Positions 2,181 to 47,360 of a DNA stretch of 64,000 nt are shown here, piece by piece (position 1 is the stretch's first letter; the number at the start of each line of letters is the position of its first letter). The position numbers were made by a program, and so were the translations under genes. Location: assembly GCA_948567375.1 (NCBI GenBank), contig OX419755.1:26862517-26926516 (forward strand). The letters run 5' to 3'. The stretch comes from Lunularia cruciata (lineage: Eukaryota > Streptophyta > Marchantiopsida > Lunulariales > Lunulariaceae). The notes under the pieces were generated by a model. That model had not been told where the DNA came from, did not search any database, and was given only the letters and a program-made list of their open reading frames with translations.

Positions 2181-2345
2181 AGTTTAGAGCAACACAAAAC
2201 AACCTCCGACTTACCAATGACATAAACAACACTCCCGGGATGCAATAACATGAAATGCCAAGTCATCGTACCATAAGAAAAAAAAACCCTCACACCAAAT
2301 GGCACCAATAGTACATGTGGATTATTTTCTTGATGATAGTGTTAG

Positions 2346-2432
2346 GTGTTAGGTCAAGCTATGGACTTCAACTATTTGACTTGGATTGTGAGTCTTGGCT
2401 TGGCAAGGCAGCATAGGATGCGCTTGATAGGC
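2346..2432 (+). pseudogene. C-terminal end of a retrotransposon C5-cytosine methyltransferase (element A)
   Basis: The frame from 2346 begins VLGQAMDFNYLTW and continues IVSLGLARQH. The corresponding frame in element B (40140-40081, minus) reads GLG*AMDLNCLTWIVSLGLE, directly downstream of the other methyltransferase motifs. In the C5 methyltransferase family this is motif X, normally a GNAV/GQAM-type loop that completes the AdoMet pocket. Only this last piece survives the 5' truncation. Taken alone it would not be diagnostic; the call rests on colinearity with B. Confidence 0.7.
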
Positions 2433-2789
2433 ATCACCACTCGGGCATTTGTGAGCCCTATGCCTATCAAGACAATTCAGGCACATGATGGGGGCGATGG
2501 ACCAAGTGGACATGGTATTCTTGGGACACAACTAGTAGCTACTAGGGAGAGTGGTCTACTTGGAGTCCATCTAGGTGAGCGTGGGCTACTTGGATTACAC
2601 CCTTGGTCTACTTGGAATGCTGCTAGAGGACGTGTGGAGCTTGTAGCTAGAGTGGAGGGAGCTTTTCACATCAAGGTTGGGACCTCTAGTGGTCAAGGCC
2701 ATGACACTACTACTCCCAAGGGCCTAGTGTAGCAGCCAATCAGTATGTCTTCTACTCTTAGGATAGTTATAGAGGATACTTGGGAGCCA

Positions 2790-3640
2790 AATCTTGGCCC
2801 AAGCTTACAAGAGAGGAAAGACGGACAGTTTGGAGGTTCTTGAGGAACCAGACGAGTTGTTTTGCCTTCAGTATGAAGGATTTGGGCGCTCTAAAAGGAC
2901 ATGGTATTTGGATTGACCTGACTAGTGATGTATCAATTTTCAACATCCTTATCAATATAGTGATATGGAGAGGACATTGATTTAGAGTTAGAGTAGAGAT
3001 ATTTTTTAGGCTAGTTTGGTGGAGATTTCACATAGAGAATATGCATCAACCATAGTGATGCCAGCCAATAAGGATATGCATAGCAACTACAAAGATGGGC
3101 AGATGTGTGGAGATAACTGTCCTATCAACTGACAGACTAGGGCTGATCGGTATGCCATGCTTACACCAGAGGAGATCTTTGATGCAATTGGGCATACAAA
3201 AGTCTTCAATACTTTGGATTTTTGAGCAAGATATCATCAATTGCCAATAAGGGATGAGGATAAGTTCAAGATAACATTTTGGGCTATTGATTCTCACGAT
3301 AAGGATGTCTTATATCAATGGAGGTTCTTACCATTTGGATTAAAGAATGGTCCTATTGAGTTCCAAAGGGTCATGGATAGGATCTTAGAAGGATTGGATT
3401 TTGCTTGAGGCTATATTGATGACATTTTGGTCTAAAGCACTACTGTGGAGTAGCATGAGAGACAATTGTTGGAGGTGTTGAGAGATTGAGATCTCATGGA
3501 CTCAAATTACATCTTGGGAAGTGTAGGTTCTTCCATGAGCAGGTTGAGTATTTGGGTCACACTATCTACCCCGGAGGACTTCGTGTTCAACAGACCAAGG
3601 TGGAGGCTATTGCACAAATCCTTGACCTACGGATGTGAGT
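2790..3640 (+). pseudogene. Ty3/gypsy reverse transcriptase (element A), degenerate
   Basis: Recognisable RT blocks run in order: a lead-in WRFLRNQ/KDLGALKGH segment (about 2830-2900), TKVFNTLDF near 3200, a WRFLPFGLKN segment near 3320-3350, EFQRVMDRILEGLDF, and the catalytic YIDD box at 3412-3423. The thumb follows with a GKCRFFHEQVEYLGHTIYPG segment (about 3520-3570). The enzyme would copy element RNA into DNA. Stops interrupt it, for example after LDF and just before the YIDD box, so no functional product is expected. The YIDD box differs from the FLDD of the chromoviruses in this window. Confidence 0.9.
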
Positions 3641-3829
3641 AGAGTTCGAGCATTCCTTGGGTTGGCAAACTTCTATCACCGCTATGTTAGAGGATTTAGA
3701 GCCATTGCAAAGGCTTTTGCAAAGCTGACCAAGCTTACACAAGAGTAGTGTTGGAGAGATGAGTAGGAGAGAGCTTTTGTAGAGCTCAAGGAGAGCAAGG
3801 AGGAGAGGTTGACATTTGCTCCTATTTTG

Positions 3830-4215
3830 AGGAGACCGATCAGAGGACAACCATTTCAAGTTCATAGTGATTAGAGTATGTTGGGGCTTGGAGGAGTACT
3901 TACCCATCATGATGATGAGGGGAAGGAGTTTGTGGTGGCCTATGCTAGTTGCTCCAAGAATTAAGCGGAAGCAAAGTATAATTCATATGAGAGAGAGTGC
4001 TTGGCAGCAGTTTGGGCAATAGCACATTTCCAATGTTACCTATTTGGTAACCCCTGTACTCTCATCACTGATCATCAGCCACTAAAGTGTTGATGGAGTC
4101 TGATAAGCATTCAAGGAAGCTTGTACAATGGACTTTGATTTTAGAGGAGTATGATTTCACGGTTATTCATAGACCTGGAATGGTGAACCATGATGTAGAT
4201 GGGTTGAGTAGAAAC
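3830..4215 (+). pseudogene. RNase H domain (element A), degenerate
   Basis: The segment RRPIRGQPFQVHSD leads into the first catalytic aspartate at about 3868, followed at once by an in-frame TAG. GGVLTHHDDEGKEFVVAYAS, a YSSYERECLA-like segment and an ITDHQPL segment with the third-acidic-residue motif follow. This is the canonical order of gypsy RNase H after RT. The stop in the first active-site block, plus frame breaks near 3960, make it non-functional. Confidence 0.85.
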
Positions 4216-4589
4216 CCATGTCCCAGCTAGTAAGATCAGACCAATGCACATTGGCATGGATAGATGAGGAAATGGTACTAGGTTGGCATGCATCTGCCTT
4301 TCTTTGTGTAGTTTTTAAGGCTTTGGTGGTATCTCTCTCAATGCATAGAGGAGGAGTTATTGAGGTTACAAATCCAAAGGGTGAAGATATTGCTGCAATT
4401 CAGCAAGACATTCATGATGATGTCTTAGTGATAGACTATCTTGCACTGGTGTTGTGGGTGGCATAGTTGGGGCCAAGGAAAGAGATCATGTCCTTCAGCA
4501 AGCTAGGCAGTTCAGAATGGAGTGCAGCCACCTTCTTTGTATATGGGAGGATGGAAGAGTGAGAGTAGTACCACTTCCATCTCAAAGAC

Positions 4590-5160
4590 CACAGTTGGTC
4601 TATCATGCTCATGAGGACCTAAGACATTTTGCAGTAAAGCATACATATAGCTTACTCCAAAGTCATTATTGTTGGCCCGGTATGCAGACCAATATACAAT
4701 AGTTTGTTGCCAAATCTGAGGTTTGTTGCCAGATCTGGGGTATGTGACCAAGTTAGAGCATCACTTAAAGCTCCTATGCCACAACTACACCCATTACCTA
4801 TCATAAGATTAGGTTACCACTAGATTTTAGGCTTTCTTAGACCTTCACCGTTAATTGTGAGACATCATTGGTATGTTTTGGTGATGGTGGAGCACTTCTC
4901 CAAGTGGATTGAGTTGGTGGTACTTCTTGACAAGTCCAATGAAGGGACGGCTTATTTGCTCCTAGATCGGATTCTCAATCATTTTGGTGCACCAATTGAG
5001 GTTTTGACTAATCAAGGTATAGAGTTCTTAGGGGAGTTTAATGTCTTGTGTGACAAGACTTTGATTGATCATCATACTACCTCCCAAGATCACTCTGAGG
5101 AAAATGGCTTAGCAAAGAGAGTGGTTTAGATGATGAAGAGAGGATTACAAAAGTATAGTT
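4590..5160 (+). pseudogene. Integrase zinc domain and catalytic core (element A)
   Basis: The HHCC zinc domain is visible as YHAHEDLRHF, then HYCWPGMQ, with trailing cysteines near 4720-4745. The core follows: a LDF segment with the first Asp near 4820, VMVEHFSKWIELV, then VLTNQGIEF near 5010-5030, and NGLAKRVV near 5104-5127. In gypsy integrases the triad is D, D, E. The second Asp is Asn here (TNQG rather than TDQG) and the Glu of the GLAER block is Lys. Both changes are G-to-A on the coding strand. The enzyme would be dead even without the stops. Confidence 0.85.
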
Positions 5161-5354
5161 TGTAGACATGCCACTTGGGAGATCGGGATCTCTAGTTACC
5201 ATGCTTGGCCATGGGTTATCGATTTAGCTAGCAAGCCTCCTTACCATCCTTCTCTCCTTACTTCCTACTTGATGGACAAGAGCCAGATTTACTTGCAGCC
5301 ATTCATCAAGATGCTACTGTAGTCTTGGACTTGGATGATCTAGATGTTGTATGA

Positions 5355-5870
5355 GTGTATGTTCTCAACAAGAAAAGATCTTTCAGAGTGATGCCAATGG
5401 CCTTTGAGAAGTTGGCAATTACCCAACATAGGGATACCTTACGTTATGCTACTATTCAAGGAGGAGGTTATAGATCCTTGATCCGTCAATTTCATCTAGG
5501 TAATTATGTATATCTACAACAGACAACACCAATGACACTTGATGTTTCTATAGGCCGCACTATCTTAAAAGGGCGTGAGGTTTTTCCATCTAGAGTCCTT
5601 GTATTGGAATGACATGATGGTGTTGTTTGGAAGGAACATGTGTGCAATTGTACGCAATTGTGTGCCATGCCACCTCCCAAACATTGATGGTACTATGGAT
5701 CCAAGCTTAGCACTTGTACGGGTAGGCTTGAGGTGTATGTTATGTAGCTCTTTTGAAGGAGCTGCTATTATGTTAGTATGTGATAGCTGTTTGAGAGGAT
5801 GGCATATGGTATGTATGACTCCTCCCCTCACGGTGGTTCCTCAAGGATAGTGGTTATATCCTAGATGTAC
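5355..5870 (+). pseudogene. Integrase C-terminal domain fused to a PHD zinc finger (element A)
   Basis: A DNA-binding C-terminal module (HLGNYVYLQQ, TLDVSIGRTIL, about 5490-5570) continues through HLPNIDGTMDPSLALV into a PHD-type finger. The ligands in order are CMLC (about 5732-5743), CDSC (about 5779-5790), H then C in GWHMVC, and a final YPRC where the first Cys is Tyr. Spacing and the TPPL/VP/G/W residues between the H-x2-C and the last pair match C4HC3 PHD fingers, which bind histone H3 tails. The open frame runs from about 5575 to a stop at 5848, with the last ligands just beyond it. Chromoviruses carry a chromodomain in this position; I see none here. Confidence 0.85.
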
Positions 5871-6051
5871 TTGACCTATAGCTAGTTCATCCTTTATATG
5901 GTATAAACTGCAGACATGGATTACCAACAGGGCTCAATAGCACCTGGCCTCCTGATCTTTGCACATCATAGGGTATACCATATACTTGGAAAAGATGGCT
6001 ATCTAGAATTAGAGGGACCTAACCGCTAGCTAGGAGGGCAATTGTGGCACT

Positions 6052-6144
6052 TTAGAGTTTATGTATGACTTATGTGTGAGTTGTGCTTCTATAGTGTATG
6101 ATGCTAACAACAATGTATGTTGTGTAGCTATGTTGTGTAGCACA
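6052..6144 (+). repeat. Truncated 3' LTR of element A
   Basis: It starts TGTGGCACTTTAGAG after a purine-rich stretch (AGGAGGGCAAT) that can serve as polypurine tract. The same start appears in element B on the minus strand at 36533. It stops after about 93 bp, where C1's LTR end begins. Confidence 0.75.
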
Positions 6145-6264
6145 ACAAGGTACCAAGTAGCTTCCTAGATGCTTCTAGAATATACTTATAATTCTTGGCT
6201 AATTTGACCTATTTGCTACTTTGTTAGTCTTGATTAACTCGTCTATAAACTCCATATTGTTACA
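6145..6264 (-). repeat. Truncated 3' LTR of C1 with adjacent polypurine tract
   Basis: The segment ends CTCCATATTGTTACA at 6264, the same terminus as the LTRs ending at 11254, 23448 and 63403. Immediately inside (6265-6280), the minus strand reads GCGGTGGTGGAATT. It corresponds to the cleaner GCGGAGGAGGAAT of C2 and is the expected polypurine tract. Confidence 0.8.
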
Positions 6265-14251: not shown

Positions 14252-16155
14252 GATGATTGAGTTCCTACAATCTATGGGTCAATCTTTGTAGTAATAAGAA
14301 TCCTTGGCCAAAATTCCAGTTTCATCTTGAAATCTACCACCTGATTTTTCATCATAGGGATTAGGATGAATGCATTTTCAAGGTGCTTCTTGCAATCCAC
14401 ATATGTTATTGTCATGTTAAGCCGTTATTTCCACTCTACCCAACAAATATATTGATGGGATAGATCTTTTTATATCTCAAGGTAGACTAGATATTTGTGG
14501 TTTATCTACACCACAAATGCCTTCTTGCTAAAATAGTGCTTCCAATGCTTGGTTGCAAGAACAATAGCAAACTCTTCTCATTTGGTGGTATGATGATAGT
14601 TGTTCTTTAGCAATAATAGCTTTTGAGAGAAATATGCAACTAGATGCCATCTATCATTCCATTCTTATTGTAGGACTACTCTTATTGCAATGTTTGATGC
14701 ATTTATTGCTAGCTTTATTTGATATTTTGGATCATACTATTTCAAGATTGGTCCATGTAGTAATGCATCTTTCAATTCATGAAAGGCCAATTCCTATGTG
14801 GTTCCCTATATCCACTTCTTTCCCTTGCCAAGTAGTGCCATTAGAGATTGTGTGACCTTAGAGAAGTCCTTGAAATTTTGATGATAGAACCCCATCAATC
14901 CAATGAAACTCTTGAGTTGAGTTTGATCTTTTAGAGCACTCCATTTCTAAATGGCCTCTATTTTATCTATTAACATTTGGATACCATTTTCACTTACTCT
15001 ATGCCCCAAGTAATCTACTTCAAACTTGCCAAACTCACACTTTGAGACTTTGGCATACAATTAGATTTTGGCATACTTTGGCATACCATAGGATTTGGAG
15101 GACTTCTTGTAGATGTTGCATGTGCTCCTTCATTGTCTTACTATAGACTAAGATATCATCAAGAAAATTGATAATAAACTTATCCAAATATGAACAAAAT
15201 ATATCATTCGTCAAACTCATGAAAGTGATTGGTGCATTGGTGAGGCCAAACATCATACCTAGGTACTCAAAGTGATCATACCTAGTTCAAAAGATAATTT
15301 TGTATACATCTTCCTTTGTGATTCTCATTTGGTTATAACCACTCCATAGATCAAGTTTGGTGAAGTGTTTTGCACCATTGAGTTGATCAAATAAGTCATC
15401 CATGCAAAGTAATGGGTATTTGTTCTTCACTATTTGTTGATTTAGGCCCCGATAGTCAATGCATATGCATATTGTATCATCTCTCTTCTTCAAAAACAAG
15501 ACAAGAGCACCATAAGGTGATAAGTTGGATTGGATAAAACTTTTCTATAACATATCCTTGATTTGAGCCTTGCACTCTTCCAACTCATGAGGTGATAGTC
15601 AATATGAGGCCTTACAAAGAAGTGTCTTCCCAAGAAGTATCTTGATTTTGTGATCTATTCTTGTTTTTGGTGGTAATCTTGAGGGTAAATCATCAAGAAA
15701 GACATCTTGAAATTCATTGACCATACCTTTCAAATTCTTAAGAATTTGTCCATCAAGTTGTGCACTCTAAACTTCTCTTATTAGATCCATGAAACATTTG
15801 TCTATCTTATTGATAGTTGTTGTATGTATTATATAAAGAGATAATTATTGCCTTTGTGAATTTTCTCTATCTCTAATGATCTTCCATTGGCTAGTTCTTA
15901 TTATTTTCTTTCTCTAATTGACAGTGGGGTTGTAGTGTTCCCTCCATGATATGTCTAAGATTGCATTGTAACAAGCTAATTTTATCACTTGCTACTCAAT
16001 TTCTTCTTGATACTCTTTTACAAAGAGTGTTACTTTTCTAGGTAATGACTCAATCTGACCATTAGGTAACTTTACTTCTTCATTTTCATCCTTCTTTGGT
16101 TCCATCTCCAACCTTATTGCAATAGAGCAAGACAAGAAATTCTTTATTGCCCTAA
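14252..16155 (-). pseudogene. RNase H, reverse transcriptase and C-terminal protease half (E)
   Basis: RT is well recognisable. CIDYRGLNQQIVKNKYPL, DDLFDQLNGAKHFTKLDLWSGYNQ lie in 15499-15287. [13 protein letters not shown] and the catalytic FLDDILVYS lie in 15256-15035. RNase H is downstream (about 14252-14900). Towards 16155, protease-side text SIAIRLEMEPKKDENEEV matches D at about 45827-45878. That sequence was joined to the half at 16629 before the solo LTR inserted. Confidence 0.85.
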
Positions 16156-24870: not shown

Positions 24871-26340
24871 CTTCTAAAGCTATCCTAAACTCAATTTGGA
24901 CCTGTGAGTTGACTAACAAAATCATAATTGCCACCATGATGAGAGGAAGAGACTTCAAACAAGGTCATCATGATAGGGCATTAGGGATGGCATGGAACCT
25001 ATTGGGTTTATTCTCAAGTTTGAGGTCAAAATACTATAGTTATTCCTCTCATTAATGATATCAATTTGTCATGTGCTCCAAATGTAATGTCCACAAGGAT
25101 TTATGATTGGTTTTCATGATCACTTGTTTTCCCTAAAGATAATGCCCCTATACCTTGGTGGCATAAACCATTGCTAGTTGTTCTTGATCTTGTGCAGAGT
25201 AATTCCTTTTTGTGTTGTTTAGTCGATGAGATACAAAGGCAATGGGATGTAACTCATGTGGAAATTCTTGTTGCAACATAACTCCAATGGCAAATTTAGT
25301 AGTATCAAAATCAACCACACAAGGTAGCTAAAGATCATATGGTTAAAGAATGGGTCTTGAAGACACCATATGTTTGAGCTTCCGGAATGCTTTTTCATAC
25401 TTGGTGGTCCATTGAAAACTTAAGGTCTTCTCCAAAAGGTTGGTCAATGGTGCAGCCACATGAGTAGTGGATGAAATGTCAATAAAAACTTGGCAATCTA
25501 TTAAATGCCTGCATTTCTATGGCATCCATTAGAGTAAACCAATCAATAATGGCCTTGATTTTCTACTCTTACATCTTGATCTTCTTTGATGAGGTGTTAT
25601 GACCCAAGAAGATATCTTCCTTCTAGCCAAAGATACACTTTGACTTTTTGTAGTAAAAATTCCAACGACTTAGTCATCTTAGGACTTCTAATGCATGATT
25701 TGTATGTTCTATAACCATGTTGTTAAAGATTAAAATATCATCCAAGAAGACCACCATGTACTGATCCAATAAACCATCCAACACCTGATGCATCTAATCC
25801 ATGAAGACTACTTGAACATTAGCAAACCTCAAAGCTAGAACTCTCCATTCAAAATGCATATATCTTGTGCAAAAGGTCATCTTTTGCACAAGTCTTTTAC
25901 CTCTCTATCAATGGGAATTTGCCAAAAGCCATTTTAAAGATCCAACTTCAAGAAGTACCATGCTCCACCCAATTGATCAAGCACGTCATCAATTTGAGAC
26001 AAGGGATATGCATTCTTCATTATTTGTTTATTGAGGCCAAGGTAATCAATAAAAAAGTCTTCTATCCCTCTTTAGAACAAATAGTACTGGTGCTCTCCGG
26101 CGAGATGTACTATATTGTATGAAATCCTTCTTTAACAACTCCCTTAGTGTAATTCAAAGCTCATCCAACTCCTTTGGTGAGAGTTGATAGATTGATCTAC
26201 TCATTAGAGTACTTACTAGCAATAATTCAATCTTGAAGGCCATACCATGATTGGAAGGTAATCTGTTTGGCAAATCATCCAAAAACACATCTACAAACTC
26301 TTGAACAATTTGATCAACCATTGCTTGATGAGGTTTTTAG
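24871..26340 (-). pseudogene. Reverse transcriptase and RNase H (C2)
   Basis: The FLDDILI box is on the minus strand at about 25725-25755 (complement of AAAATATCATCCAAGAAGAC). RT fingers and palm extend to about 26330 and RNase H to about 24900. It is colinear with C1 over its full length. There are many frame breaks. Confidence 0.8.
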
Positions 26341-28631: not shown

Positions 28632-29760
28632 GTTGCTATGAAGGTGATGTAAAAGACCCTTGCCTCCTCTCTCTCTAGGTAACATCATATGTATATACAT
28701 AGCTTGTACATAATACTTTCATTCATGAAACTCAAGAAAAAATTCAAGTGAATCCAAGGCAATACTCAATATATAATATCATTTATTTATACCATACCAT
28801 GGTACATGAAGAAAGATAAAATGATGTGTTTCTAATAAACATGCTTACTAATTGACTCTCATTCACTCTCCATGTCTTTGCTCTTTTCCTCAACTCCCTT
28901 ATTGTGAAGATATGTTCCCTCTTGGACTACGGTGTCATAGTCTACCTCTCTCTCATCTAGGAGTCCACTCTCCATGAACATGTCAGTGAGAAATTGAATC
29001 ACAAATTTCACCTTGTATCTCTGACTATTTGGCCAACATATCTATTTTTGTAAGAAGGCCATAGCTAAATTTACTACTTGGAGCATGAATTCCACCAAAT
29101 CATCATCCTCTCCTGCTTGCTACAAGTGTACCCTAGATCTCTTGACCTTCCATTTCACCATAAGGGCAAGTACCCATGCACCACCTTTGGCCAGCATGTA
29201 GAGACATAGTCTACCTCTCTCTCATCTAGGAGTCCACTCTCCATGAACACACAAGCGAGAAATTGAATCACAAATTTCACCTTGTATCTCTGACCATTTG
29301 GCCAACATATCTATTTTTGTAAGAAGGCCATAGCTAAACTTACTACTTGGAGCATGAATTCCACCAAATCATAATCCTCTCCTGCTTGCTACAAGTGTAC
29401 CCTAGACCTCTTGACCTTCCACTTTACCATAAGGGCAAGTACCCATTCACCACCTTTGGCCAGCATGTAGAGACAATGAGAGCAACAATCATGAAGAAAA
29501 ATGGCCTCCATATGGGATAAATCCATTGCTATGCCAAGTACCTTCTTGTTGTGTGATCCCGTATAGGAAACCAATCTTGAAAAAGGGAGTAAGGGACAAA
29601 CCTCTTCCTTGCATTCCCAAGAAGAAATGCTTGAATCATCTCAAGAGTTAAAGTGAATGGCCTACCACTCATTGTACTTGCATGTGTAGTGGCATCCCAT
29701 GTCCTCACAAACTCAATGGAGGAATGAATCTGCATGCAAAACACAAGAGAAAAAACAAAG
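28632..29760 (-). pseudogene. X-minus, 5' part: unknown protein-like sequence
   Basis: The open frame at 29744-29529 has SGRPFTLTLEMIQAFLLG, FQDWFPIRDHTTRRYLA. Frame-shifted continuations downstream give ALMVKWKVKRSRVHL and FVIQFL.CVFMESGLLDERE, ending EEKSKDMESE and a stop. X-plus at 33470-33930 has DWFSMRDHN, HPKVVHGNVILIVKSKM, FMGSGLVGKGE and a stop at the same place. The layout vaguely resembles the domain annotated as putative plant transposon protein. That is an inference, not a recognised match. Confidence 0.55.
28936..29475. repeat. 269-bp tandem duplication within X-minus
   Basis: CATAGTCTACCTCTCTCTC starts at 28936 and again at 29205. The units are nearly identical and end in CCAGCATGTAGAGA. 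Near identity indicates a recent duplication relative to the surrounding decay. Confidence 0.92.
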
Positions 29761-35897: not shown

Positions 35898-36533
35898 TTT
35901 TCGTGCATATACACATTGCATACATCGTTGTCAACATCACACACTATAGAAGAATAACTCACACATAAGTCATACATTGATTCTAAAGTGCCACAATAAT
36001 CAATTTTTTCACATAACTCAAATCACACTCAATCAGATCAATACTTGATCTATCACTCAATAATATGCAAACAACTGAGCATTGATTACAATCAAGCCCC
36101 ATCCACTCTAGCTAAGAGACTCCAAGTGATACTTGCTGGCTTTCTATCTACTCTAGCTAGGAACTCAAAGGCTCAACAACAAAAAAGTGAGCTTTCTAGA
36201 GCTGCACTTCTAGGGTATACTCTTGATTTTGACCTAGCTCTCACCCCAATGGTCCCATTGACGGCACACCCAACCGTACAAACAATGCAAATGATGGTGG
36301 GTCTCAGCATGTAGTAGTACCCAAAATATGAAATCTGACTGTTTGAAAGTAGTCTATGAGTAATTGCCAAAATACCTCTAACTACTATCACTACTACTCT
36401 AGTGTCCGAGCAATTTAGATTTGAAGCTACAAATGGTGTGATAGCTATCATGTGTATACACATCACTACACAACATCACACACTATAGAAGCACAACTAA
36501 CACATAAGTCGTACATGGACTCTAAAGTGCCAC
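35898..36533 (-). repeat. Full 3' LTR of B followed by an extra LTR start
   Basis: On the minus strand the LTR runs from TGTGGCACTTTAGAGTCC at 36533 to about 35997 (537 bp). A second LTR start, TGTGGCACTTTAGAATC, then runs from 35996 to 35898 and stops. The part from about 36437 to 35997 is homologous to 45227-44787. The outer fragment (about 99 bp) is just the LTR portion that the 5' LTR lacks. Confidence 0.75.
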
Positions 36534-37330
36534 AATTGTCTCCCCAATTGGCGGTTAGGTTCCTCTAACTCCAAATAGTCATCTACTCCAAATATGTGGT
36601 ATACCCTATGATGGGCAAAAGATTAGGAGGTTGAGTGCTATTGAGCCCGTCGTTAGTTGCTTGTCTGTAATCCATTCCGTATAAAGGATGAACTAGCTAC
36701 ATGTCAAGTACATCTATGACATAACCACTATCCCTAAGGAACCATCGTGAGGAGAGGAGTCATAAGTGCCATATGCCATCTTCTCAAATAGCTATCACAA
36801 ACTAATATAGTAGCAACTCCACCAAAAGAGCCGTATAACCTACACCGCAAGCCTACATGTACAAGTGCCAAGCTTGGGTCCATAGTACCATCAATGTTTG
36901 GGAGGTGGCATGGCGCACAATTGCACATATAATCCTTCCACATAGCACCATCATGTCCTTCCAACACAAGGATTCCAGATGGCAAAGTTCACACACTCTC
37001 AAGATAATGTGGCATGTAGAAACATCAAGTGTCATTGGTGTTGTCTACTATAGATATACATAGTCACTTGGATGAAATCAACGGATTGAGGGTCTATAAC
37101 CTCCTCCTCAAATGGTAGCATAGCATAAGGCATCCCTACGTTGAGCAATCACCAAGTTTTCAAAGGCCATTGGCATCACTCTCCAAAAGATCTCTACCCA
37201 TTGAGAACATGCACTCATCCATACATCTGGATCATCCAAGTCCAACACTATGATAGCATCTTGATGAATGGCTATAGGTAAATTTGGATCTCATCCAAAG
37301 AGTAGAAAGGAGAGATGGATATTAAGGAGT
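36534..37330 (-). pseudogene. Integrase C-terminal domain and PHD finger (B)
   Basis: The open frame 36985-36734 contains NCAPCHLPNIDGTMDPSLALV, then the PHD region: LRC with the second Cys changed to Tyr, ILVCDSY, RRWHMAL, and after a stop WLCHRC at about 36705-36725. B lost ligands 2, 4 and 6 that A keeps, but retains the seventh ligand (Cys in WLC) that A lost. Across the two copies every zinc ligand of a C4HC3 finger is attested. A PTLDV/GRTIL-type integrase C-terminal segment lies upstream near 37035. Confidence 0.8.
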
Positions 37331-37880
37331 CTTGCCGGCTAAACCGATAGCCCATGGTCAACCAAGGTAATTGGAGATCCCAATCTCCCAAGGGGCCTCT
37401 CTACAAACTTCTGCAATGCTTTCTTCATTGTTTGAACCACTCTCTCTATTAAGGCATCTACCTCGAGGTGATCTTGAGAGGTAGTATTATGATCAATCAA
37501 AGCCTTGTCACACAAGACCTGAAATTCCACTAAGAACTATGTACCCTAATTAGTCAAAACATCAATTGGTGAACCAAATGACTAAAAACTAGATCCAAGG
37601 ATGAGTAAGTTGTCCCTTCATTGGACTTGTCAAGAAGTGCCACCAATTCAATCCACTTGGAGAAGTGCTCCACCATCACCAAAATGTATAAATGATGTCT
37701 CATAGTCAATGGTAAAGGTCTAGCAAAGTCCAAACTCCAATGGTGACCCAATCCCATGATAGGTAATGGGTGTGATTGTGGCATAAGAGCATTAAATGAT
37801 GCTCTAACTTAGTCACAAACCACACATTTGGCAACAAACTACATATTGCACCACCAATAGTGACTCTAGAGTAAGCTATA
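37331..37880 (-). pseudogene. Integrase zinc domain and catalytic core (B)
   Basis: WSLDFARPLPL (first catalytic Asp, near 37735), VMVEHFSKWIELVALLDKSNEG, and downstream ALIDHNTTSQDHLEVDALIERVVQTMKKAL, where the catalytic Glu of the GLAER-type block is kept (near 37450). The HHCC domain is seen upstream near 37820-37930. The block with the second Asp is broken by a stop and frame change near 37545-37570. Confidence 0.82.
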
Positions 37881-39600
37881 TGTATGCTTTACTCCAAAAT
37901 GGCCTAGCTCCTCATGAGCATGATGGACCAACTATGGTCTATGAGGTGGAAGTGGTACTACTCTCACTCTACCATCCTTTCATACACAAAGAAGATGTTT
38001 GCTCTCCTATGTGAACTGCTTGGCATGGTGAAGAACATGGTCTCTCTTTTGAGCTCCAACTATACCACCCACAACACCAATGCAAAGATAGTCCATCACT
38101 AAGATATCATCATGAATGTCTTGCTAAACTAAACCACTATCTCCACTCTCTAGATCTGTGACCTCAACACCTCTTCTTATATGCACTAAGAGAGACACCA
38201 CCAAAGCCTTAGAAAATATGTAGAGAAAGGTAGATGCATGTCAACATGGCACCATCTATCTCACCATGCCAACACACTCTAGTCTGATCTTGCTGGCTAG
38301 GACATGGGTTGTTTCTACTCAACCTATCTGCATCATGGTTCACCACTCCAAGTCTGTGAATAACCATGAAATCATACTCCTATAAAATCAAAGCCCATCA
38401 TGCAAGTTTCCTTGAAAACTTATTGGACTCTATCAACCACTTTATTGGCTGATGATTAGTGATGAGAGTAAAGAGGTTACAAAATAGATAACATTGGAAA
38501 TGTGTTACTGCACATATTGCTACCAAGCACTCTCTCTCATATGAACTATACTTTGCCTCCACTAGACTATTGGAGAAACTAGCATAGGCCACCACAAACT
38601 CCTTCCCCTCATCATCATGTTGGGTAAGCACTACTTCATGCCCAAACATACTCCAATCAATGTGAATCTGAAATGGCCATCCTCTGATCGGTCTCCTCAA
38701 AATAGGAGTAGATGTCAACTTCTCCTTGAGCTCTACAAAAGCTCTCTCTTACTCATCTCCCCAACACCACTCTTGTGTAAGCTTGGTCAGCTTTGTCAAG
38801 GCCTTGGCAATGGCACTAAATCCTCTAACATAACGGTGATAGAAGTTTGCCAACCCAAGGATGCTTGCACTCTGCTCACATCAGTAAGCCAAGGAATACA
38901 TACAATAGCCTCCACCTTGGTTTTCTGAACACCAAGTTCTCCAGGGTAGATAGTGTGACCCAAATACTCAACCTGTTCATGGAAGAACCTACACTTCCCA
39001 AGATGTAATTTGAGTCCATGAGATCCCAACCTCTCAAACACCTCCAACAATTGTCTCTCATGCTCCTCTACAGTAGTAATATAGACCAAAATGTCATCAA
39101 TATAGCATCATGAAAAATCCAATCTAACTAGGATCTTATCCATGATCCTCTAGAACTTGACAAGAGTGTTTTTTAACCCCAATGGTAAGAACCTCCACTA
39201 CTAAAACACATCCTTACTGTGAGGATCAATAGCCCAAAATGTTGTCTTGGACTTATCCTCCTCTTTGATTGGCAAACTGATGATATCCTACTCAAAGATG
39301 CAAAGTACTGAAGACCTTTGCATGTCCAATGACCTTTGCATCTAAGATCTCCTCTGGTGTAGGCATGACATACCAATCAGCCCTAGTTTGTTGATTGATA
39401 GGATGTTAATCTCTACACATCTGCCTATTTGTGTAGTTGCCATGCATATCCTTCTTGGCTGGTATCCCTGTAGTTGATGCATACTCTCCATGTGAAATCT
39501 CTACCAACCTAGCCTCAAAAAGGTCACTACTCCGGCTCTAAATCAATGCTTGCTCCATGTCATTATATTTGTAGGGACGTCAAAAAACTGGTGTATTGCT
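37881..39600 (-). pseudogene. Reverse transcriptase and RNase H (B)
   Basis: RT shows YIDDILVY at about 39075-39101 and a thumb open frame 39089-38796 with GLKLHLGKCRFFHEQVEYLGHTIYPG (split here only by wording). RNase H is the open frame 38718-38398: RRPIRGWPFQIHIDWS, EFVVAYASFSN, YSSYERECLVAI, LITNHQPIKW. The third acidic position is Asn (TNHQ instead of TDHQ), again a G-to-A type loss. It is colinear with A. Confidence 0.85.
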
Positions 39601-40074
39601 AGTCAACTCAATCCGTATACCAGGTCCTTTTGGAGCACCCAAATCCTTCATATTGAAGGTAAAACAACTCGTGTAGCTCCTCAAGAACCTCCAAACCCTT
39701 TGTCTTTTCTCTCTTGTAAGCTTGGGTCCAAGATCTAACTCTCAAGTATCCTCTATAACTATCATAGGAGTGGAAAACACATAGATTGGCTGTTACATTG
39801 GGCCCTTTGGAGCAATAGTGTCATGCCCCCAACCATTAGAGGTCCCAACCTCATTGTGAAAAACTCCCTCTAATTTGGTTGCAAGCTCCATATGTCCTCT
39901 AGCTACATCCCAAGTAGACCAAGGGTGTAATCTAAGTAGACCACTCTCCCTAGTAGCCATTGGTTGTGTCCCAAGAATACCATGCCCACTCGGTCCATCA
40001 TCCCTAGCATATGCTCAAATTGTCTCAATGGGCATAGAGCTCACAAGTGTCTGAGATGGCTATCAAGCACATCT
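39601..40074 (-). other. Linker between methyltransferase and RT (B), unrecognised
   Basis: Homologous to 2433-2790 of element A (for example ESGLL, HPWSTW and VELVA segments on the coding strand), so it is part of the family's polyprotein. I see no domain motif. The Gly/His-rich text suggests a disordered linker. Confidence 0.5.
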
Positions 40075-41090
40075 ATGATGCTTTTCCAAACCAAGGCTCA
40101 CAATCCAAGTCAAACAATTTAGGTCCATAGCCTAACCTAACCCTTGATGCCTAGATGCCTCTTACACTATTGGAACAATGGTAATATTGGTGCTAAAACC
40201 CATTGCCTACTATCTCTCATTGGCATTGGGCTCCACTAACTACTATAAGTGTGAGTTGCAAACCAATCCAAGACCTCCCTCTCAAAAAGCATGGGAACCT
40301 GGGAAACTCATAAGTGTGGAAAAAGTAGCTCTAGGTTATCCAACTAGATTCACCACTGCCATAGGTGACTTATCAGCCACTACCACCATCTAAGTCTGAC
40401 GCCCAACATCCAAGATGCCATCAACAATGATGTGGTCTAGTTGTTGAATCCCGTCATAAGTGCAATCTAGAACCTCTTTGGGTAAGAGGTCTGTCCACTA
40501 AAGAAAAGACAATGAGCCCTTGATCTTACTCAGGCTACATCTAACAATACAATATGTCCCATCCAAGAATGGACTTGATGCATACTTGCCACTACATGGA
40601 TGCAAGAATCACCCATCAAAGGGACGTTCTCCAAAAGGTAAGCTGGAGAAATGGATTGATGAACATAGAGATGTCATAGTATCTGTAACATCTCCCAAAA
40701 CACACCAGAATGGGGATCTTGAAGACTTAAACTTTGACCAACATGTATATGTCCTTGACATGGCCATCTAGAAATCACCATATCCCATGAATGAATAGGT
40801 CCATGTCTCTCCAAATCAAGCATCCTTAGCAAGGAAATGTTTGCTGGTAGGGCCTTCTTGTAATCCTTGACTGCTAACATTGGTAATAACTTAGGATACC
40901 AATAGGCCAAGTGTGCCACATGATGGAGAGAGACTCGTCTAGCAGTCTCACTTCTCTGCACATACAAGTACTTCTTTACTCGTATACCCACCTATAGTAC
41001 CGTAGCTAGTCTAGTGCTAATCCCTCCGAACAACTCCAATACACATACTCTCTCTATTGGATATGGCCAAGCAATGAGTGTGGTATTTAG
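40075..41090 (-). pseudogene. Retrotransposon-encoded C5-cytosine DNA methyltransferase (B)
   Basis: Canonical motifs occur in order on the minus strand. Motif I is VLELFGGIS at 41042-41019, the AdoMet-binding FxGxG-type loop. A YVQRSETARRV acidic/motif II region follows. Motif IV is WPCQG, with PCQ at 40763-40755 and the catalytic Cys at 40760-40758, followed by LQDPHSGVFWEML. Motif VI is YLLENVP, with ENV at 40631-40623. A motif VIII-like LLDVA*VRSRAH lies near 40520-40550. After a frame change near 40400 come FSTLMSFPGSHAF, NANERQ*AMGF and motif X AMDLNCLTW (about 40130-40095). The enzyme would methylate cytosine C5. It is broken by several stops. It sits between protease and RT, in frame direction with both, so it was part of the polyprotein rather than a later insertion. 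Confidence 0.88.
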
Positions 41091-41379: not shown

Positions 41380-42000
41380 GACTATAATGAGCCAAGACTG
41401 CCACTACTGAATTGTATTGGTAGGCAACATACTCACCCCTCACTAGACTGCCAACCTAGTCTATAGGAGGCTATCTCCTCCCAATAGTCAATACTGAAAT
41501 CCATGGGGTATAACAATGCTCGCCCAACTAACACATCATACAACTCAACTATGGTCGCAATGGCTTGAGCTCTCACCATAGAGCTATCAATTGGATGACC
41601 GGGCCAAATCTGAACAACCAGCTCTCCACATGTGATGTACTATGTAGAACCACCACCTAGAGATGTTTGGATCTGAAATGGACACCTCTCCACATTGATC
41701 TTCCGTAACTCTAGACCGACAAGTGTAGCCTTCTCCAACATAAGGGGTTGTGCACCAAAGTTTAATAAGACCCTCTATGGTGTATAAAATTTCCTTGAAG
41801 GTCCCACCAACAAAAAAATACCACTCTGGTTATCCAAAAAGACAACTCTAAGTGTAAACTGTGCTTGCTCAAAGGCCGGTCTAGCTAGTAACTCATCCAA
41901 CTAGCCGGTGTTGCTTGCCATAAGCCATTGGTCACTAAGTGGATCCCATGCTCCTCAACCAAGTCAACTCCACTATTAACCACCTCTGCTCTGATGTGAG
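41380..42000 (-). pseudogene. Aspartic protease (B)
   Basis: VLLNFGAQPLMLEKATLVGLEL with the active-site triplet near 41754-41762 is clearly a retropepsin, but D-S-G reads N-F-G. Further on come CGELVVQIWPGHP and YDVLVGRALLYPM, which resemble the flap and C-terminal LVGR block, then DFSIDYW near 41490. The active-site Asp-to-Asn change alone would abolish activity. The domain is followed by about 300 bp leading into methyltransferase motif I. Confidence 0.75.
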
Positions 42001-42299
42001 CCCTAGCTCACATCATCCCTACTCTCACAAAGCATGGCAGCCAACTAGAACATTGGAGTTGTGTTAACTCCTAGTGTACACATGTCATTGGCTAAGAATA
42101 ATGGAAAGCGCATAATCAGCTCGGCCACCCCCAACATTGTGCTAGACTCAATCTATGTAGTAGTAGGTAGCTAACTAGTAGGTAGTCCATCATGCACCCT
42201 ATCACCACCTACCACACCTGCACTAGGACGTCTAGGAGCCATGAATATTGTTGTAGTAGCTTAGAGAGTGTAAACGATTGGGAAAGTCTGACCTTTCTA

Positions 42300-43900
42300 C
42301 CAACCTCTCCTCTTTGTGGATCCAACTCCACTAATGCTCCTCTATGCTTTGGAGCACATACTACACTCCTAGTCATTGTGGCAGATCATCCACCTTCTAC
42401 ACATGAAATGCAAGGCATCTTTATCACCAACATATGAGGTGGAAGCCTTAGCACCCAAATCTGGTCTCCTCTGAGCAATGGCCATGCTAGCCAATCTTTA
42501 CTCCAATTGCTCAATCCAAGTAGCCATGGCTGTATTAGAAGTAAAGGCAGGTACTGCACCTCTACTAGGTGTGGATCCTCTACTACCACCTTGTCCTCCA
42601 TGACCTAGAGCTCCTCTACCACTTGCCATAGCAGCCCTACCACTCCGTAACTTTGGGTGTAGGTCAAAGCTTTGGTCACTAGTGTGACCAAATCTGCGGC
42701 AATGCTTACACTATCTTTGTGTTGGGAGAGATGCACCAGAGGTATCAGATCCACTGCCCTAAGTGCACTCTCTCTTGTGATGAGGTCCACCACAATTCCG
42801 ACAAGCAACACCACCACTCATTGGCTGATGTTGACTCAAAAATGAAGGTAAGGGTTTGGCCACACTAGGCTCTCCACTCACTCCATAGGATCTAGGTTGT
42901 CCACCTTGGCTTGAGAAACCAATATGGCGTGGTGCATGTTGGAAGAAGTAATAGCTATGGGTAAGGTCTCCCTACCAAACCTAGATGTCACCACTCTCTC
43001 CTCCACCATGTTGAGCTCAATATGCTCAGCCAAACCAAAGACCATTGCCAAAGTAGGCAAAGTAGCCTGTAGCAATGTAACATCACAAACTTTACATCTC
43101 AATTCCTTGCCTAGTATCTTATACCAAAATTGGACTGCTTGGGCCTCAATAACTCCTTGAGTAACATTGATCAACCATCTCATGCAAGTATATGCCTTGC
43201 GTGGGCTCTCTCCAGCCTTCCATTGGAACTCCTACAGGCTCCTCAGCTCATCAATCCGCACTCCTTGGTAGTTCTGCCTCAAACATGGGAAGAACTCCAC
43301 CATGGAGTTAAACCTCGGTACTACACCACTTCTTTTAGTAGTACCTCCACTTGTAGTAGCACCATCTCCAAGAGATCCACCAATACTACTAGAGCTTGAA
43401 CTTGTAAGTACTGCCAATCTTCCCCTAAAAATTGTGCCTTAAGTGATGAAGACATAGTTTGGAGACCAATACTATCTCCATAGCTCAATCTCTTCCAAGT
43501 GAGTTCTCTTGAACTCATGGTAGTTATCCATTGGCGGACCTTCCAAGTGCTGAATTAACCCTTTCCATGAACAAAGCTGGGGTCCGCATTTGTTGCAGAT
43601 CACACCAGCTATCAAACTTTTGGATGAAGTCATCTAACTCAATGGTACCCATTGTACTAGAGTAATGCTTGGGATCTTGACCCCATAAATCTTGTCCATG
43701 TTCAACAACAACGGTGCGGACACAACAAATGCACTCTCAATTAAATCAGCTCTTATGTCAAACTCCAACTAAGAGTCAATCTCCTCTTCCATTGGGAACT
43801 GAGATACAAGTTGATATCGAGTGCCACTTCAAGTAAACCCATTATGTATTGTAGTGTTATCTCCTTTGGAATCCCCAAAGAACTCTATTGTGACAAAGTA
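42300..43900 (-). pseudogene. Gag with two zinc knuckles (B)
   Basis: The capsid part, NYQGVRIDELRSL near 43240-43280, continues to the open frame 43183-42878 (MRWLINVTQGVIEAQAVQF, then RETLPIAI). Zinc knuckles follow on the minus strand: CRNCGGPHHKREC near 42770-42808 and CKHCRRFGH near 42680-42710, the latter with its last Cys changed to Ser. Tail text includes GRGALGHGGQGGSRG. This is the usual Gag order: capsid then nucleocapsid. Several stops are present. Confidence 0.8.
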
Positions 43901-44786: not shown

Positions 44787-45227
44787 GTAATCAGTACTTT
44801 CACACCACTCAAATCACACTCAATCAGATCAATACTTGATCTATCACTTAATAATTTGCCAACAATTGGGCACCTATTACAGTCAAGCTACATCCACTCT
44901 AGCTAAGAGACTCCATGTGATGCTCACCGGCTTTCTATCCACTCTAGCTAGGAACTTGAAGGCTGAACAACAAAGAAGTGAGCTCTCTAGAACTGCACTT
45001 CCAAGGTATACTCCTAATTTTGACCTAAGTCTCACCCCAATGGTACCACTAATGGTACACCCAAAGGTGCAAACGGTGCAAGTGACAATGGACCCCATCA
45101 TGCAGTTAGTACCCAAAACATTAAATCTGACCGTCGGAAAGTAGTCTATGAGTAATTGCCAAAATACCTCTAACTACTATCATTGTTACTCTAATGTCCA
45201 AGCAATGTGAAGCTACAAATAGTGTGA
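44787..45227 (-). repeat. 5' partial LTR of B
   Basis: Homologous to about 35997-36437, including GAAGCTACAAATAGTGTGA at its outer edge. It lacks the first about 95 bp (the TGTGGCAC start). The inner boundary reads TGATTACA on the minus strand, a plausible CA-type LTR end. Confidence 0.75.
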
Positions 45228-45640
45228 CAAATCCTTGCACTGTTTATGAAGCCATTGCTTGTGCTCAAAGAATAGCAAGGGTGCTTGGAGGAGGTGAAGG
45301 GGTAGTCTTGACTCAACACTATTGGGCTAAAACACCGCACTCTGGAAGACCAATTCTTATGAGATTGGGCAACATTTGGTTTCAAGACCGAGGAGCATGA
45401 CTACGCCAAAGAGAACAGGGATGGGTCAAAGAAAGGAGAGATGGAGTCCAATGAGGAGAAGGGGCTAGAGTAGAACAACAATGTTGCTATAATTACGGCC
45501 AAGTTGGACACATAGACATCAATTGTTGTACTTGTCTTCTTAGAGGCCCTTGTCCTCCATAGAAGTGACCTTTGAACAACATGGAGAGACAAATTAAAGA
45601 GGAAGATGATGAAATGACATTGGAAAACATAGATTTCTAG
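45228..45640 (+). pseudogene. Gag, C-terminal part with zinc knuckle (D)
   Basis: NPCTVYEAIACAQRIARVL resumes the frame interrupted at 35897. A knuckle CYNYGQVGHIDINC lies near 45480-45530, in which the second zinc-binding Cys is Tyr. The E copy keeps the Cys at the same place. EEDDEMTLENI precedes the stop near 45640. Confidence 0.8.
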
Positions 45641-46229: not shown

Positions 46230-47360
46230 GACCAATGAGTTTCACAATGTCTTTTTAGATGATTTACCCTTAAGATTACCACCAAAAAAGTGAGTAGATC
46301 ATAAATTTGAGATGCTTCCAAGGAAGACAACTCCTTGTAAGGCCCCATATAGACTATCATCTCATGAGTTGGAGGAGTTTAATGCTCACATCAAGGATAT
46401 GTTATAGAAAGGGTTTATCCAACCCAACGTATAACCATATGGGGCTCTTGTCTTGTTTGTGAAGAAGAAAGATGGGACAATGCGCATGTGCATTGACTAC
46501 CAAGAACTAAATCAACTAATGGTGAAGAATAAATACCCATTACCTTGCATGGATGATCTATAGATATAACTCAACGAGGCCAAGCATTTCATCAAATTTG
46601 ATCTATGGAGCAATTACAACCAAATCAAGATTGCAAAGAAAGATATACATAAAAATTGCCTTTCAAACAAGTTATGGTCACTTTGAGTACCTAGCACTGC
46701 CATTTGGCTTTATTAACATACCATCCACTTTCATGAGTTTGATAAATGACATATTTTATCCATACTTGGATAAAAATTTATTATTGTTTTCCTTGATGAT
46801 ATCTTATCTACAACAAGATCATGATGTAGCACAAGCAACATCTATAAGAATTCCTTTAGATTCTACAACAAAATATGATACTATTTGGCAAGGAGAAGAA
46901 GTGGATATGGTGAACAACACAAGAATTGGCCTTTCATAAATTGAAGATGCATTACTACATGCACCAATCTTGAAATAATTTGACCCAAAATGTCCAATCA
47001 AGTTGGCTATAGGTACATCAGGTGTTGCTATAAGATCAGTCCTACAATAGGAAAAGAATCAATGATGGTACCCAATTGTATATTTCTCTCAAAAACTATT
47101 ATTGTCAAAATGTAACTATCACACCACCAAATGAGAAGAGTAGATCACTGTCCTTGCAACCAAGCATTGGAAGCACTATCTTAGCATGAAAGCATTTGTA
47201 ATGGAGATAGACCACAAACCTCTAGTCTACCTTGAGACACAAAAATATCTATCTCATCAATAGATTTGAATGGTAGAGTGGAAACAATGGTTCAACATGA
47301 TGATCAAGCATGTGGAAGGCAAGAAGCAACTTGCAAATGCATTCACCTGAATACTTATGG
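46230..47360 (+). pseudogene. Reverse transcriptase and RNase H (D)
   Basis: RT blocks: [72 protein letters not shown], and the active site FLDDIL at 46789-46806. RNase H: KLAIGTSGVAIRSVLQ, IVYFSQKLLLSK, EIDHKPLVYL. There are several single-base indels, for example near 46655 and 46840. The order and wording match E. Confidence 0.88.

What the first reader, a model, noticed from the sequence alone, without database searches (positions are those of the whole stretch)
40075..41090. C5-cytosine DNA methyltransferase encoded inside a Ty3/gypsy retrotransposon
Seen: minus-strand motifs in the correct order and spacing: VLELFGGIS (I), WPCQG (IV, catalytic Cys at 40760-40758), LLENVP (VI), a VIII-like LLDVA/RSRAH block, and AMDLNCLTW (X). 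They lie between the protease and the RT of element B, in the same direction. Known: this motif set defines C5 methyltransferases, and retrotransposon-encoded examples have been reported in dinoflagellates and charophyte algae. Inference: a land-plant gypsy lineage carried its own cytosine methyltransferase, which might methylate its own new DNA copies or alter host silencing.
Basis: partly seen in the sequence, partly recalled or inferred. Interest (0 to 1): 0.95.

Follow-up and report, generated by a model that had tools for sequence, protein, structure and literature searches.

The report
Retrotransposon carrying its own DNA methyltransferase
A jumping gene in what is probably a liverwort genome carries its own DNA-methylating enzyme; the copy in this window is dead, but about three thousand places in the same genome carry the same enzyme sequence, and it may let the element mark its own new DNA.

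Summary
Window 41048-40090 (minus) is a decayed DNMT3-type C5 methyltransferase inside a full-length Ty3/gypsy element (45229 to about 35900), between protease and RT. It is not a private insertion: a DNMT 30-mer occurs at 3,005 places in the same genome and an RT 30-mer at 3,267. All 12 copies fetched hold the whole DNMT domain, 8 of them without a stop. Relatives are named from liverworts, Sphagnum, Closterium and two chlorophytes.

Three structural points go beyond the finding. (1) The repeats are split (A1-ORF-B1-A2-B2), as stated for Klebsormidium KnitGypsy-Dnmt3, but the ends are TG...CA with 4-bp target duplications in 5 of 6 copies. (2) DNMT sits on the Gag side: gag-PR-DNMT ends at a TAG, followed by CAGCCA in 11 of 12, with RT-RH-INT-PHD in the same frame behind it. 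DNMT would then be made with Gag, and Pol by readthrough. (3) A PHD finger follows the integrase.

Activity is untested; selection evidence within this genome is modest. Precedent exists in a charophyte alga: new variant of a known kind.

The parts
44788..45229 (-). A1: 5' repeat of element B; element starts TGTCAC at 45229
   Evidence: 84% to A2; aligned to A1 of copy L017, 77%
42926..43679 (-). gag (decayed)
   Evidence: tblastn with Marchantia P0058 residues 9-275, 51-62%
41436..42152 (-). region up to and including the aspartic protease (decayed)
   Evidence: tblastn with Marchantia P0073 residues 25-237, 37%
40090..41048 (-). DNMT3-type C5 cytosine methyltransferase (decayed: 13 in-frame stops in the aligned frames, a frameshift near 40500)
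40758..40760 (-). catalytic Cys codon of motif IV (PCQ)
   Evidence: Cys in 57 of 57 relatives with a residue there
39793..39795 (-). stop between DNMT and RT: TAA followed by CAGCCA; TAG at this spot in the 12 fetched copies
38862..39732 (-). reverse transcriptase region (decayed)
   Evidence: tblastn with Marchantia P0063, 60-65%; PF00078 E 1.9e-12 on one open piece
38242..38865 (-). RNase H
   Evidence: PF17919 E 1e-22; tblastn with P0063 61% and P0073 59%
36985..38216 (-). DDE integrase (decayed)
   Evidence: PF00665 E 3.3e-4, 21.3 bits, below its cut-off of 32.6; tblastn with P0030 and P0153
36707..36985 (-). end of integrase plus PHD finger
   Evidence: tblastn with P0030, 59%; Cys and His columns shared with 7 relatives. 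No Pfam hit on the decayed open piece
36448..36536 (-). B1 repeat
   Evidence: 66 bp at 91% to B2; 77% to B1 of L017
35997..36441 (-). A2 repeat
   Evidence: 445 bp, 83.9% to A1, K2P 0.169
35901..35997 (-). B2: 3' end of element B
2341..6147 (+). element A: second copy, cut at the 5' side, DNMT remnant 2346-2414, RT to PHD, single B repeat 6041-6147, no A2 found

Best explanation
Element B is a dead member of a Ty3/gypsy family that codes for a DNMT3-type cytosine methyltransferase as part of its Gag-side product. Shown by anatomy: one reading frame gag-PR-DNMT up to 1,428 aa, then a TAG in a known readthrough context, then RT-RNaseH-DDE integrase-PHD finger in the same frame; split direct repeats; TG...CA ends; 4-bp target duplications. 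Inferred: DNMT is made and packaged in about the amount of Gag, far more than RT. Inside the particle it methylates the new double-stranded cDNA at CG before integration, so the copy arrives with the mark that host DNA carries. The PHD finger on the integrase reads a histone state at the target. How the split repeats are copied is not solved. One fitting scheme: the internal B1-A2 junction (ACGACA-GC-TGTCACG) has the form of two element ends joined, and serves as template for the outer ends, after which the DDE integrase inserts them.
For: Domain order in window B matches Marchantia proteins, and one alignment to copy L017 runs over 8,625 bp at 82.7%. Of 12 fetched copies, 12 have the whole DNMT and PHD; RT and integrase are each whole in 11 and in two pieces in 1. 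Own-genome counts: DNMT 3,005, RT 3,267, B1-A2 junction 1,679, stop context 3,672, reversed-pattern controls 0 (mismatches allowed, so not every stop-context place keeps the TAG). In 12 of 12 copies DNMT and RT share a frame across a TAG, followed by CAGCCA in 11 and CAGCTT in 1. In L014 and L018 gag (P0058 residues 1-420, 56%) and DNMT lie in one open frame of 1,428 aa. CAR-YYA is the plant-virus readthrough signal (PMC2194720, one passage). Target duplications in 5 of 6 copies. Catalytic Cys 57 of 57, motif VI Glu 59 of 60 relatives. Best PDB matches are DNMT3A/B. DNMT is 72% identical to Marchantia; RT 79%, PR 61%, spacer 53%. Symbiodinium DIRS DNMT3 domains methylate CG in yeast (PMC5890265, passages).
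Against: No activity, expression, particle or readthrough data. The K. nitens Gypsy DNMT gave no methylation in yeast, which the authors call inconclusive. Within-genome selection on DNMT is weak: dN/dS 0.45, and shared N/S is 0.62 of neutral against 0.12-0.21 for PR, RT and RH, with 4 shared stop variants. Many copies have a broken DNMT: by my count 45 of 111 scored places have stops in it, and 4 of the 12 fetched copies do. Three of the 12 copies have a further in-frame stop before RT. In the chlorophyte-type relatives DNMT sits between RNase H and integrase, so a Gag-side dose is not general.
Confidence: 0.55

Rival explanations
1. The DNMT is aimed at chromatin, not at cDNA: it lowers the element's own expression or that of rivals, or blurs the host's methylation pattern, so the family persists at a tolerable level.
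For: The family reached thousands of places with DNMT about as frequent as RT (3,005 vs 3,267), which fits a long truce. De Mendoza et al. name slowing of retrotransposition as an option (Discussion read).
Against: A Gag-side, particle-directed position is a poor way to make a nuclear regulator (inference). No nuclear signal or expression was tested.
Confidence: 0.2
2. DNMT acts on RNA or as a structural or binding module, not as a DNA methylase.
For: Gag-side position would put it next to genomic RNA; the K. nitens domain showed no activity in yeast, which the authors call inconclusive.
Against: Catalytic Cys and motif VI Glu are kept in 57 of 57 and 59 of 60 relatives; nearest solved relatives are DNA enzymes.
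Confidence: 0.12
3. DNMT is a passenger captured once and carried along without use.
For: Weak within-genome constraint; stops in 45 of 111 scored places.
Against: In-frame DNMT is kept in Marchantia and Calypogeia (whole domain), Sphagnum P0012 (85% of the domain) and the Chrzof1 alga P0161 (whole domain), at 36-73% identity to copy L014; more conserved than the protease.
Confidence: 0.08
4. Chance motifs or a private host-gene insertion in element B.
For: Window copy alone falls below the PF00145 cut-off.
Against: control; 12 of 12 fetched copies and 3,005 places carry it.
Confidence: 0.005

Closest known systems
KnitGypsy-Dnmt3 of the charophyte Klebsormidium nitens (de Mendoza et al. 2018, PMC5890265)
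   Same: LTR Gypsy element with an unrearranged Dnmt3-type DNMT, and repeats described as DIRS-like (section 9 with Fig. 4 legend read)
   Different: There DNMT is said to lie in the Pol polyprotein ORF. Here it ends the gag-PR ORF before a readthrough-type stop. The host is a land plant, copy number is in the thousands, and a PHD finger is present (0 mentions of PHD in their main text). Their sequence was not in hand, so common descent is untested.
SymbioDIRS-Dnmt3 of Symbiodinium (same paper, passages)
   Same: Retroelement-coded Dnmt3-type enzyme, shown active on CG in yeast
   Different: Tyrosine recombinase, DNMT in Pol with RT, dinoflagellate host
Ordinary Ty3/gypsy LTR elements
   Same: PR, RT, RNase H, DDE integrase, TG...CA ends, 4-bp target duplications
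   Different: Split repeats instead of identical LTRs at both ends; DNMT and PHD added; PR-DNMT-RT order
PAT-type DIRS elements with split direct repeats (recalled)
   Same: Repeat order A1-ORF-B1-A2-B2
   Different: DIRS use a tyrosine recombinase and make no target duplication (recalled)
Orchid Ty3/gypsy with an AlkB-type m6A demethylase (PMC9289625, passages)
   Same: Plant gypsy lineage that took up a nucleic-acid-modifying enzyme
   Different: Different enzyme, extra ORF, angiosperm

Membership tests
KnitGypsy-Dnmt3 type | Ty3/gypsy RT, RNase H and DDE integrase | tested here: met
KnitGypsy-Dnmt3 type | Dnmt3-type DNMT with unrearranged motif order | tested here: met
   nearest solved relatives DNMT3A/B
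KnitGypsy-Dnmt3 type | DIRS-like repeat structure | tested here: met
   A1-ORF-B1-A2-B2 in window B and in the 6 copies with both ends held
KnitGypsy-Dnmt3 type | DNMT inside the Pol ORF | tested here: not met
   12 of 12 copies: TAG between DNMT and RT
KnitGypsy-Dnmt3 type | same clade as the K. nitens sequences | not tested
   no K. nitens protein among the names shown
Ty3/gypsy LTR retrotransposon | TG...CA ends and 4-6 bp target duplication | tested here: met
   5 of 6 copies, 4 bp, read by eye
Ty3/gypsy LTR retrotransposon | same LTR at both ends | tested here: not met
   5' end is A, 3' end is B
Ty3/gypsy LTR retrotransposon | tRNA primer binding site after the 5' repeat | tested here: inconclusive
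   ATCAGAG shared with the initiator-Met site (recalled) but no TGG; by eye only
DIRS order | tyrosine recombinase, no DDE integrase | tested here: not met
   rve-type integrase present; a search for a tyrosine recombinase was not made
DNMT3 family | PCQ, ENV, SxAHRxR and motif X in canonical order | tested here: met
   (59 columns at 90% or more in relatives; window B identical at 43, X or gap at 2)
DNMT3 family | branches with host DNMT3 rather than DRM | tested here: inconclusive
   31% vs host DNMT3-like, 35% vs host DRM-like over 108 aa for L014; PDB favours DNMT3
DRM | rearranged motif order (VI-X before I-IV) | tested here: not met
   the host locus L003 does show the rearranged order
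active C5 methyltransferase | methyl transfer to DNA | not testable with these tools
   needs an assay

The most novel reading that the evidence does not exclude
A lineage of DDE-integrase retroelements with split direct repeats, older than land plants and present from chlorophytes to bryophytes, carries a DNMT3-type enzyme. In land plants the enzyme is produced as a Gag fusion at structural-protein dose, with Pol made by UAG readthrough, so that every new cDNA is methylated inside the particle before it meets the host. In the host of this window (probably Lunularia cruciata) this lineage is part of the Ty3/gypsy burst that nearly doubled the genome. (Split repeats were seen only in this genome; those of the algal relatives were not examined.)
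Probability: 0.35. Interest if true: 0.9.

Novelty: new variant of a known kind. Interest (0 to 1): 0.74.

Why it matters
Cytosine methylation is a main plant mark for silencing transposons, so a land-plant transposon that writes the mark itself turns the usual arms race around. With thousands of copies in what is probably a small liverwort, and many open frames, the question left open since 2018 (why a retrotransposon keeps a DNMT) could be tested in a land plant. The Gag-side position gives a sharp prediction about dose and place of action. The split repeats with a DDE integrase and target duplications also link DIRS-like and gypsy-like life cycles, which are usually kept apart.

Tried and rejected
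Chance motifs: rejected. Private insertion: rejected. DRM-type: rejected by motif order. Ordinary LTR pair: I first took 35997-36441 / 44788-45227 as LTRs, then found the B1/B2 pair and corrected this. Viral contigs: three scans gave one weak DNMT fragment (L001, 39%) and no other relative. Tails of two relatives (P0154, P0164) looked like a second methyltransferase; Pfam gave nothing. Structure prediction never ran. dN/dS among close copies has little power; the integrase ratio came out at or above neutral on few changes, and 0.82, and I do not interpret it.

Prior-print searches: (10 of 10). Judged by the titles and abstract starts listed (6 of the 10 lists were cut short of all matches: 38, 40, 67, 102, 106, 120) and by the passages read, I saw no paper that describes a DNMT in a land-plant gypsy element; subscription journals are mostly not held. 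PMC12344493 was read in passages only: it says some DNMT3 members sit in 'LTR Copia and DIRS' elements 'as previously reported'. PMC6453930 and PMC9516144 (passages) do not connect plant DNMT3 with retrotransposons in the passages shown.

Full report
WHAT IS THERE. One open piece alone (40991-40674) reaches only 10.6 bits against PF00145, and the read-through of the whole domain 14.4 bits against a cut-off of 22, because the copy is decayed. A profile of 16 relatives, none from the window, scores the separate open pieces 11.8, 105.6, 36.2 and 19.5 bits from N- to C-terminal side; the best value in 20 first-order Markov windows of the same length is 8.7. The read-through finds 57 proteins at E up to 1, the best at E 4.9e-133 with 52% identity over 99%. 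So this is a real C5 methyltransferase relic.

THE ELEMENT. tblastn with Marchantia proteins lays gag (43679-42926), protease region (to 41436), DNMT (41048-40090), RT (39732-38862), RNase H (38865-38242) and, with P0030 and the alga-type P0153, integrase (38216-36985) and PHD finger (to 36707) in one line on the minus strand. A second copy, A, lies on the plus strand at 2341-6147 and keeps only about the last 20 codons of DNMT before its RT. Copy B is old: its A repeats differ by K2P 0.169. In its DNMT part 9 of 13 in-frame stops stand where relatives have Q, R or W and fit one C-to-T (or G-to-A) change; over the whole of B it is 27 of 71 and in A 14 of 23. CpG observed/expected is 0.17 in B and in the window at large. 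This fits decay of methylated DNA; the count over the whole of B is less striking than in DNMT alone.

REPEATS. B does not have plain LTRs. Besides the 445-bp pair (A1 45229-44788, A2 36441-35997) there is a 66-bp pair at 91% (B1 from 36536, B2 from 35997), in the order A1-ORF-B1-A2-B2. Ten of 12 fetched copies show the B1/B2 pair within the stretch held (not L020, L021; in L010 three B-like copies make the picture complex). Six copies have A1 and B2 both in hand: L011, L012, L013, L014, L016 and L017. The element runs from TGTCACG to ACGACA, the inner junction reads ACGACA-GC-TGTCACG, and B1 follows a G-run. Reading the flanks by eye, 4-bp target duplications are seen in 5 of 6: TCCT, AATC, ACTC, GAGG, CATA; L012 is unclear. 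In window B the flanks read GATT and AATT, at best a decayed duplication. De Mendoza et al. state for KnitGypsy-Dnmt3 that the repeats are those of a DIRS element while the domains are gypsy (legend read). That peculiarity is shared here.

THE FAMILY IN THIS GENOME. The window is G000:C1:26862517-26926516 of a 565,766,749-bp assembly. A 30-mer of DNMT (up to 3 mismatches) occurs 3,005 times, one of RT 3,267 times, the B1-A2 junction (21 bases, 2 mismatches) 1,679 times and the stop context (20 bases, 2 mismatches) 3,672 times; reversed-pattern controls are 0. A protein search scored 111 places; all cover at least 365 of 368 residues of the query at 72-74% identity, and by my count 66 of 111 have no stop inside. 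The first look gave 13,361 candidates, of which only these were scored. Twelve copies were read; they were picked mostly for long open frames, so they are not a random sample. All 12 have the whole DNMT domain (476-497 bits), 8 without a stop in it, and window B is 81-82% identical to each over ~1.1 kb. If every one of the ~3,000 places were a full element (9.6 kb, L017) the family would be ~29 Mb, about 5% of the genome; surely not all are, and more diverged copies are not counted, so this is a rough figure.

GAG-SIDE POSITION. In 12 of 12 copies DNMT and RT are in the same frame with a TAG 343 nt (319 in L021) after DNMT. The context is TAG CAG CCA in 11 and TAG CAG CTT in L011; three copies (L013, L014, L021) have one further stop before RT. 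In L014 and L018 one open frame of 1,428 aa holds gag (P0058 residues 1-420 at 56%), protease and DNMT; in six further copies the DNMT frame holds part of gag, in four none. The signal CAR-YYA 3' of a stop directs readthrough in tobacco mosaic and other plant viruses (PMC2194720, one passage). Window B has TAA CAG CCA at 39795. Of 24 PR-DNMT-type proteins of relatives without RT, 19 end 65-150 residues after DNMT (range 23 to 484; some may be cut by contig ends or gene models), so the break is probably not special to this genome. Inference: DNMT is a Gag-side product, Pol needs readthrough.

RELATIVES. Names given by sources: Marchantia polymorpha, Calypogeia fissa, Riccia sorocarpa, several Sphagnum, Closterium sp. 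NIES-53/54, Monoraphidium neglectum, and a label jgi/Chrzof1 that I take as Chromochloris zofingiensis (recalled). Of 140 database proteins with DNMT, 20 also carry RT, RNase H, integrase or PHD: 6 with DNMT ahead of these, 13 with DNMT after RNase H or directly before the integrase, and 1 (P0164) with DNMT at the N-terminus; one extra PHD hit at the start of P0153 I treat as spurious. In the domain tree (51 of 61 long rows; 10 gappy rows dropped; rooted by me on the second arrangement) the two main arrangements separate at 100/98 and window B falls in a 100/99 clade with Calypogeia, Marchantia and Sphagnum. With 10 own-genome copies added (quick tree, SH-aLRT only) it joins them at 100. So the DNMT moved within the polyprotein, or was taken up more than once; the present data do not decide.

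ENZYME TYPE AND CONSTRAINT. Best solved relatives of P0001 are DNMT3A and 3B (best E 8e-11), then a DRM-type enzyme (4e-7), then bacterial enzymes; the profile agrees in the main. The decayed window copy alone finds only DNMT2-type chains at E about 0.5. Motif order is not rearranged. Against the host's own exons L014 is 31% identical to the DNMT3-like and 35% to the DRM-like one over 108 residues, which does not decide descent. Between L014 and Marchantia DNMT is 72% identical, RT 79, RNase H 82, integrase C-part 85, PHD 69, protease 61, spacer 53. Within the genome, summed dN/dS at low divergence is 0.45 for DNMT, 0.15 RT, 0.25 RNase H, 0.35 PR, 0.52 PHD and 0.82 integrase; variants shared by copies give N/S 0.62 of neutral for DNMT and 0.12-0.21 for PR, RT and RH. 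DNMT is thus kept over long times but is under weaker constraint than RT among recent copies.

HOST. Inference only: eight large contigs seen, 565.77 Mb. [quoted passage not shown] If right, this family is one carrier of that burst.

MECHANISM. Shown: the anatomy above. Inferred: packaging with Gag, methylation of cDNA in the particle, histone reading by the PHD finger. The split repeats with a DDE integrase need a copying scheme that differs from ordinary LTR strand transfers; I offer the inner B1-A2 junction as template for the ends as a working idea only.

KNOWN OR NEW. Retrotransposon-coded DNMTs are known in dinoflagellates and one charophyte (PMC5890265; sections 9 and 11 read, other passages). 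I saw no report for land plants in ten library searches (listed under tried and rejected, with their limits). New here as far as those searches reach: land-plant members in thousands of copies, Gag-side position with a readthrough-type stop, 4-bp target duplications with split repeats, the PHD finger, and a second domain order in chlorophyte-type relatives.

Counts were gone over again; one search was added to test gag in the DNMT frame.

Noticed in passing
P0150, P0151, P0153-P0162 (relatives; P0161 labelled Chrzof1): In chlorophyte-type relatives DNMT lies between RNase H and integrase, not between protease and RT. Either the domain moved or it was captured again.
   Followed up: partly
P0154, P0160, P0164 C-terminal tails: Tails after the PHD finger have DPW.G...(A/S)P-type motifs like a second, amino-type methyltransferase (motif likeness recalled); no Pfam match for the two tested, P0154 and P0164.
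   Followed up: partly
window 6041-6147: Element A ends in a single B repeat without A2, as recombination between B1 and B2 would leave it.
   Followed up: no
window 7799-8862, 14479-15466, 25085-26047 (minus) and 46339-46939 (plus): Other gypsy-like RT/RNase H relics, no DNMT profile match near them. Direct repeats link about 6-11 kb with 23-28 kb (64-90%), inverted ones about 12-18 kb with 32-34 and 45-51 kb (76-84%).
   Followed up: no
window 28936-29473: 269-bp tandem duplication, 96% identical.
   Followed up: no
window 234-2023 plus: Open frames rich in S, F, L and P just upstream of element A; no Pfam hit for the one piece tested.
   Followed up: no
L002, L003, L004, L005 (own genome): Host enzymes by look of the motifs: DNMT3-like exons (L002, L005), a DRM with rearranged order (L003), a CMT-like piece (L004). 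Only L002 was compared with the PDB, and its best matches are DNMT3 chains.
   Followed up: partly
integrase of L010-L021: Among close copies the integrase shows few synonymous changes and many nonsynonymous and stop changes (17 N, 7 stop, 4 S singletons). Small numbers, unexplained.
   Followed up: no
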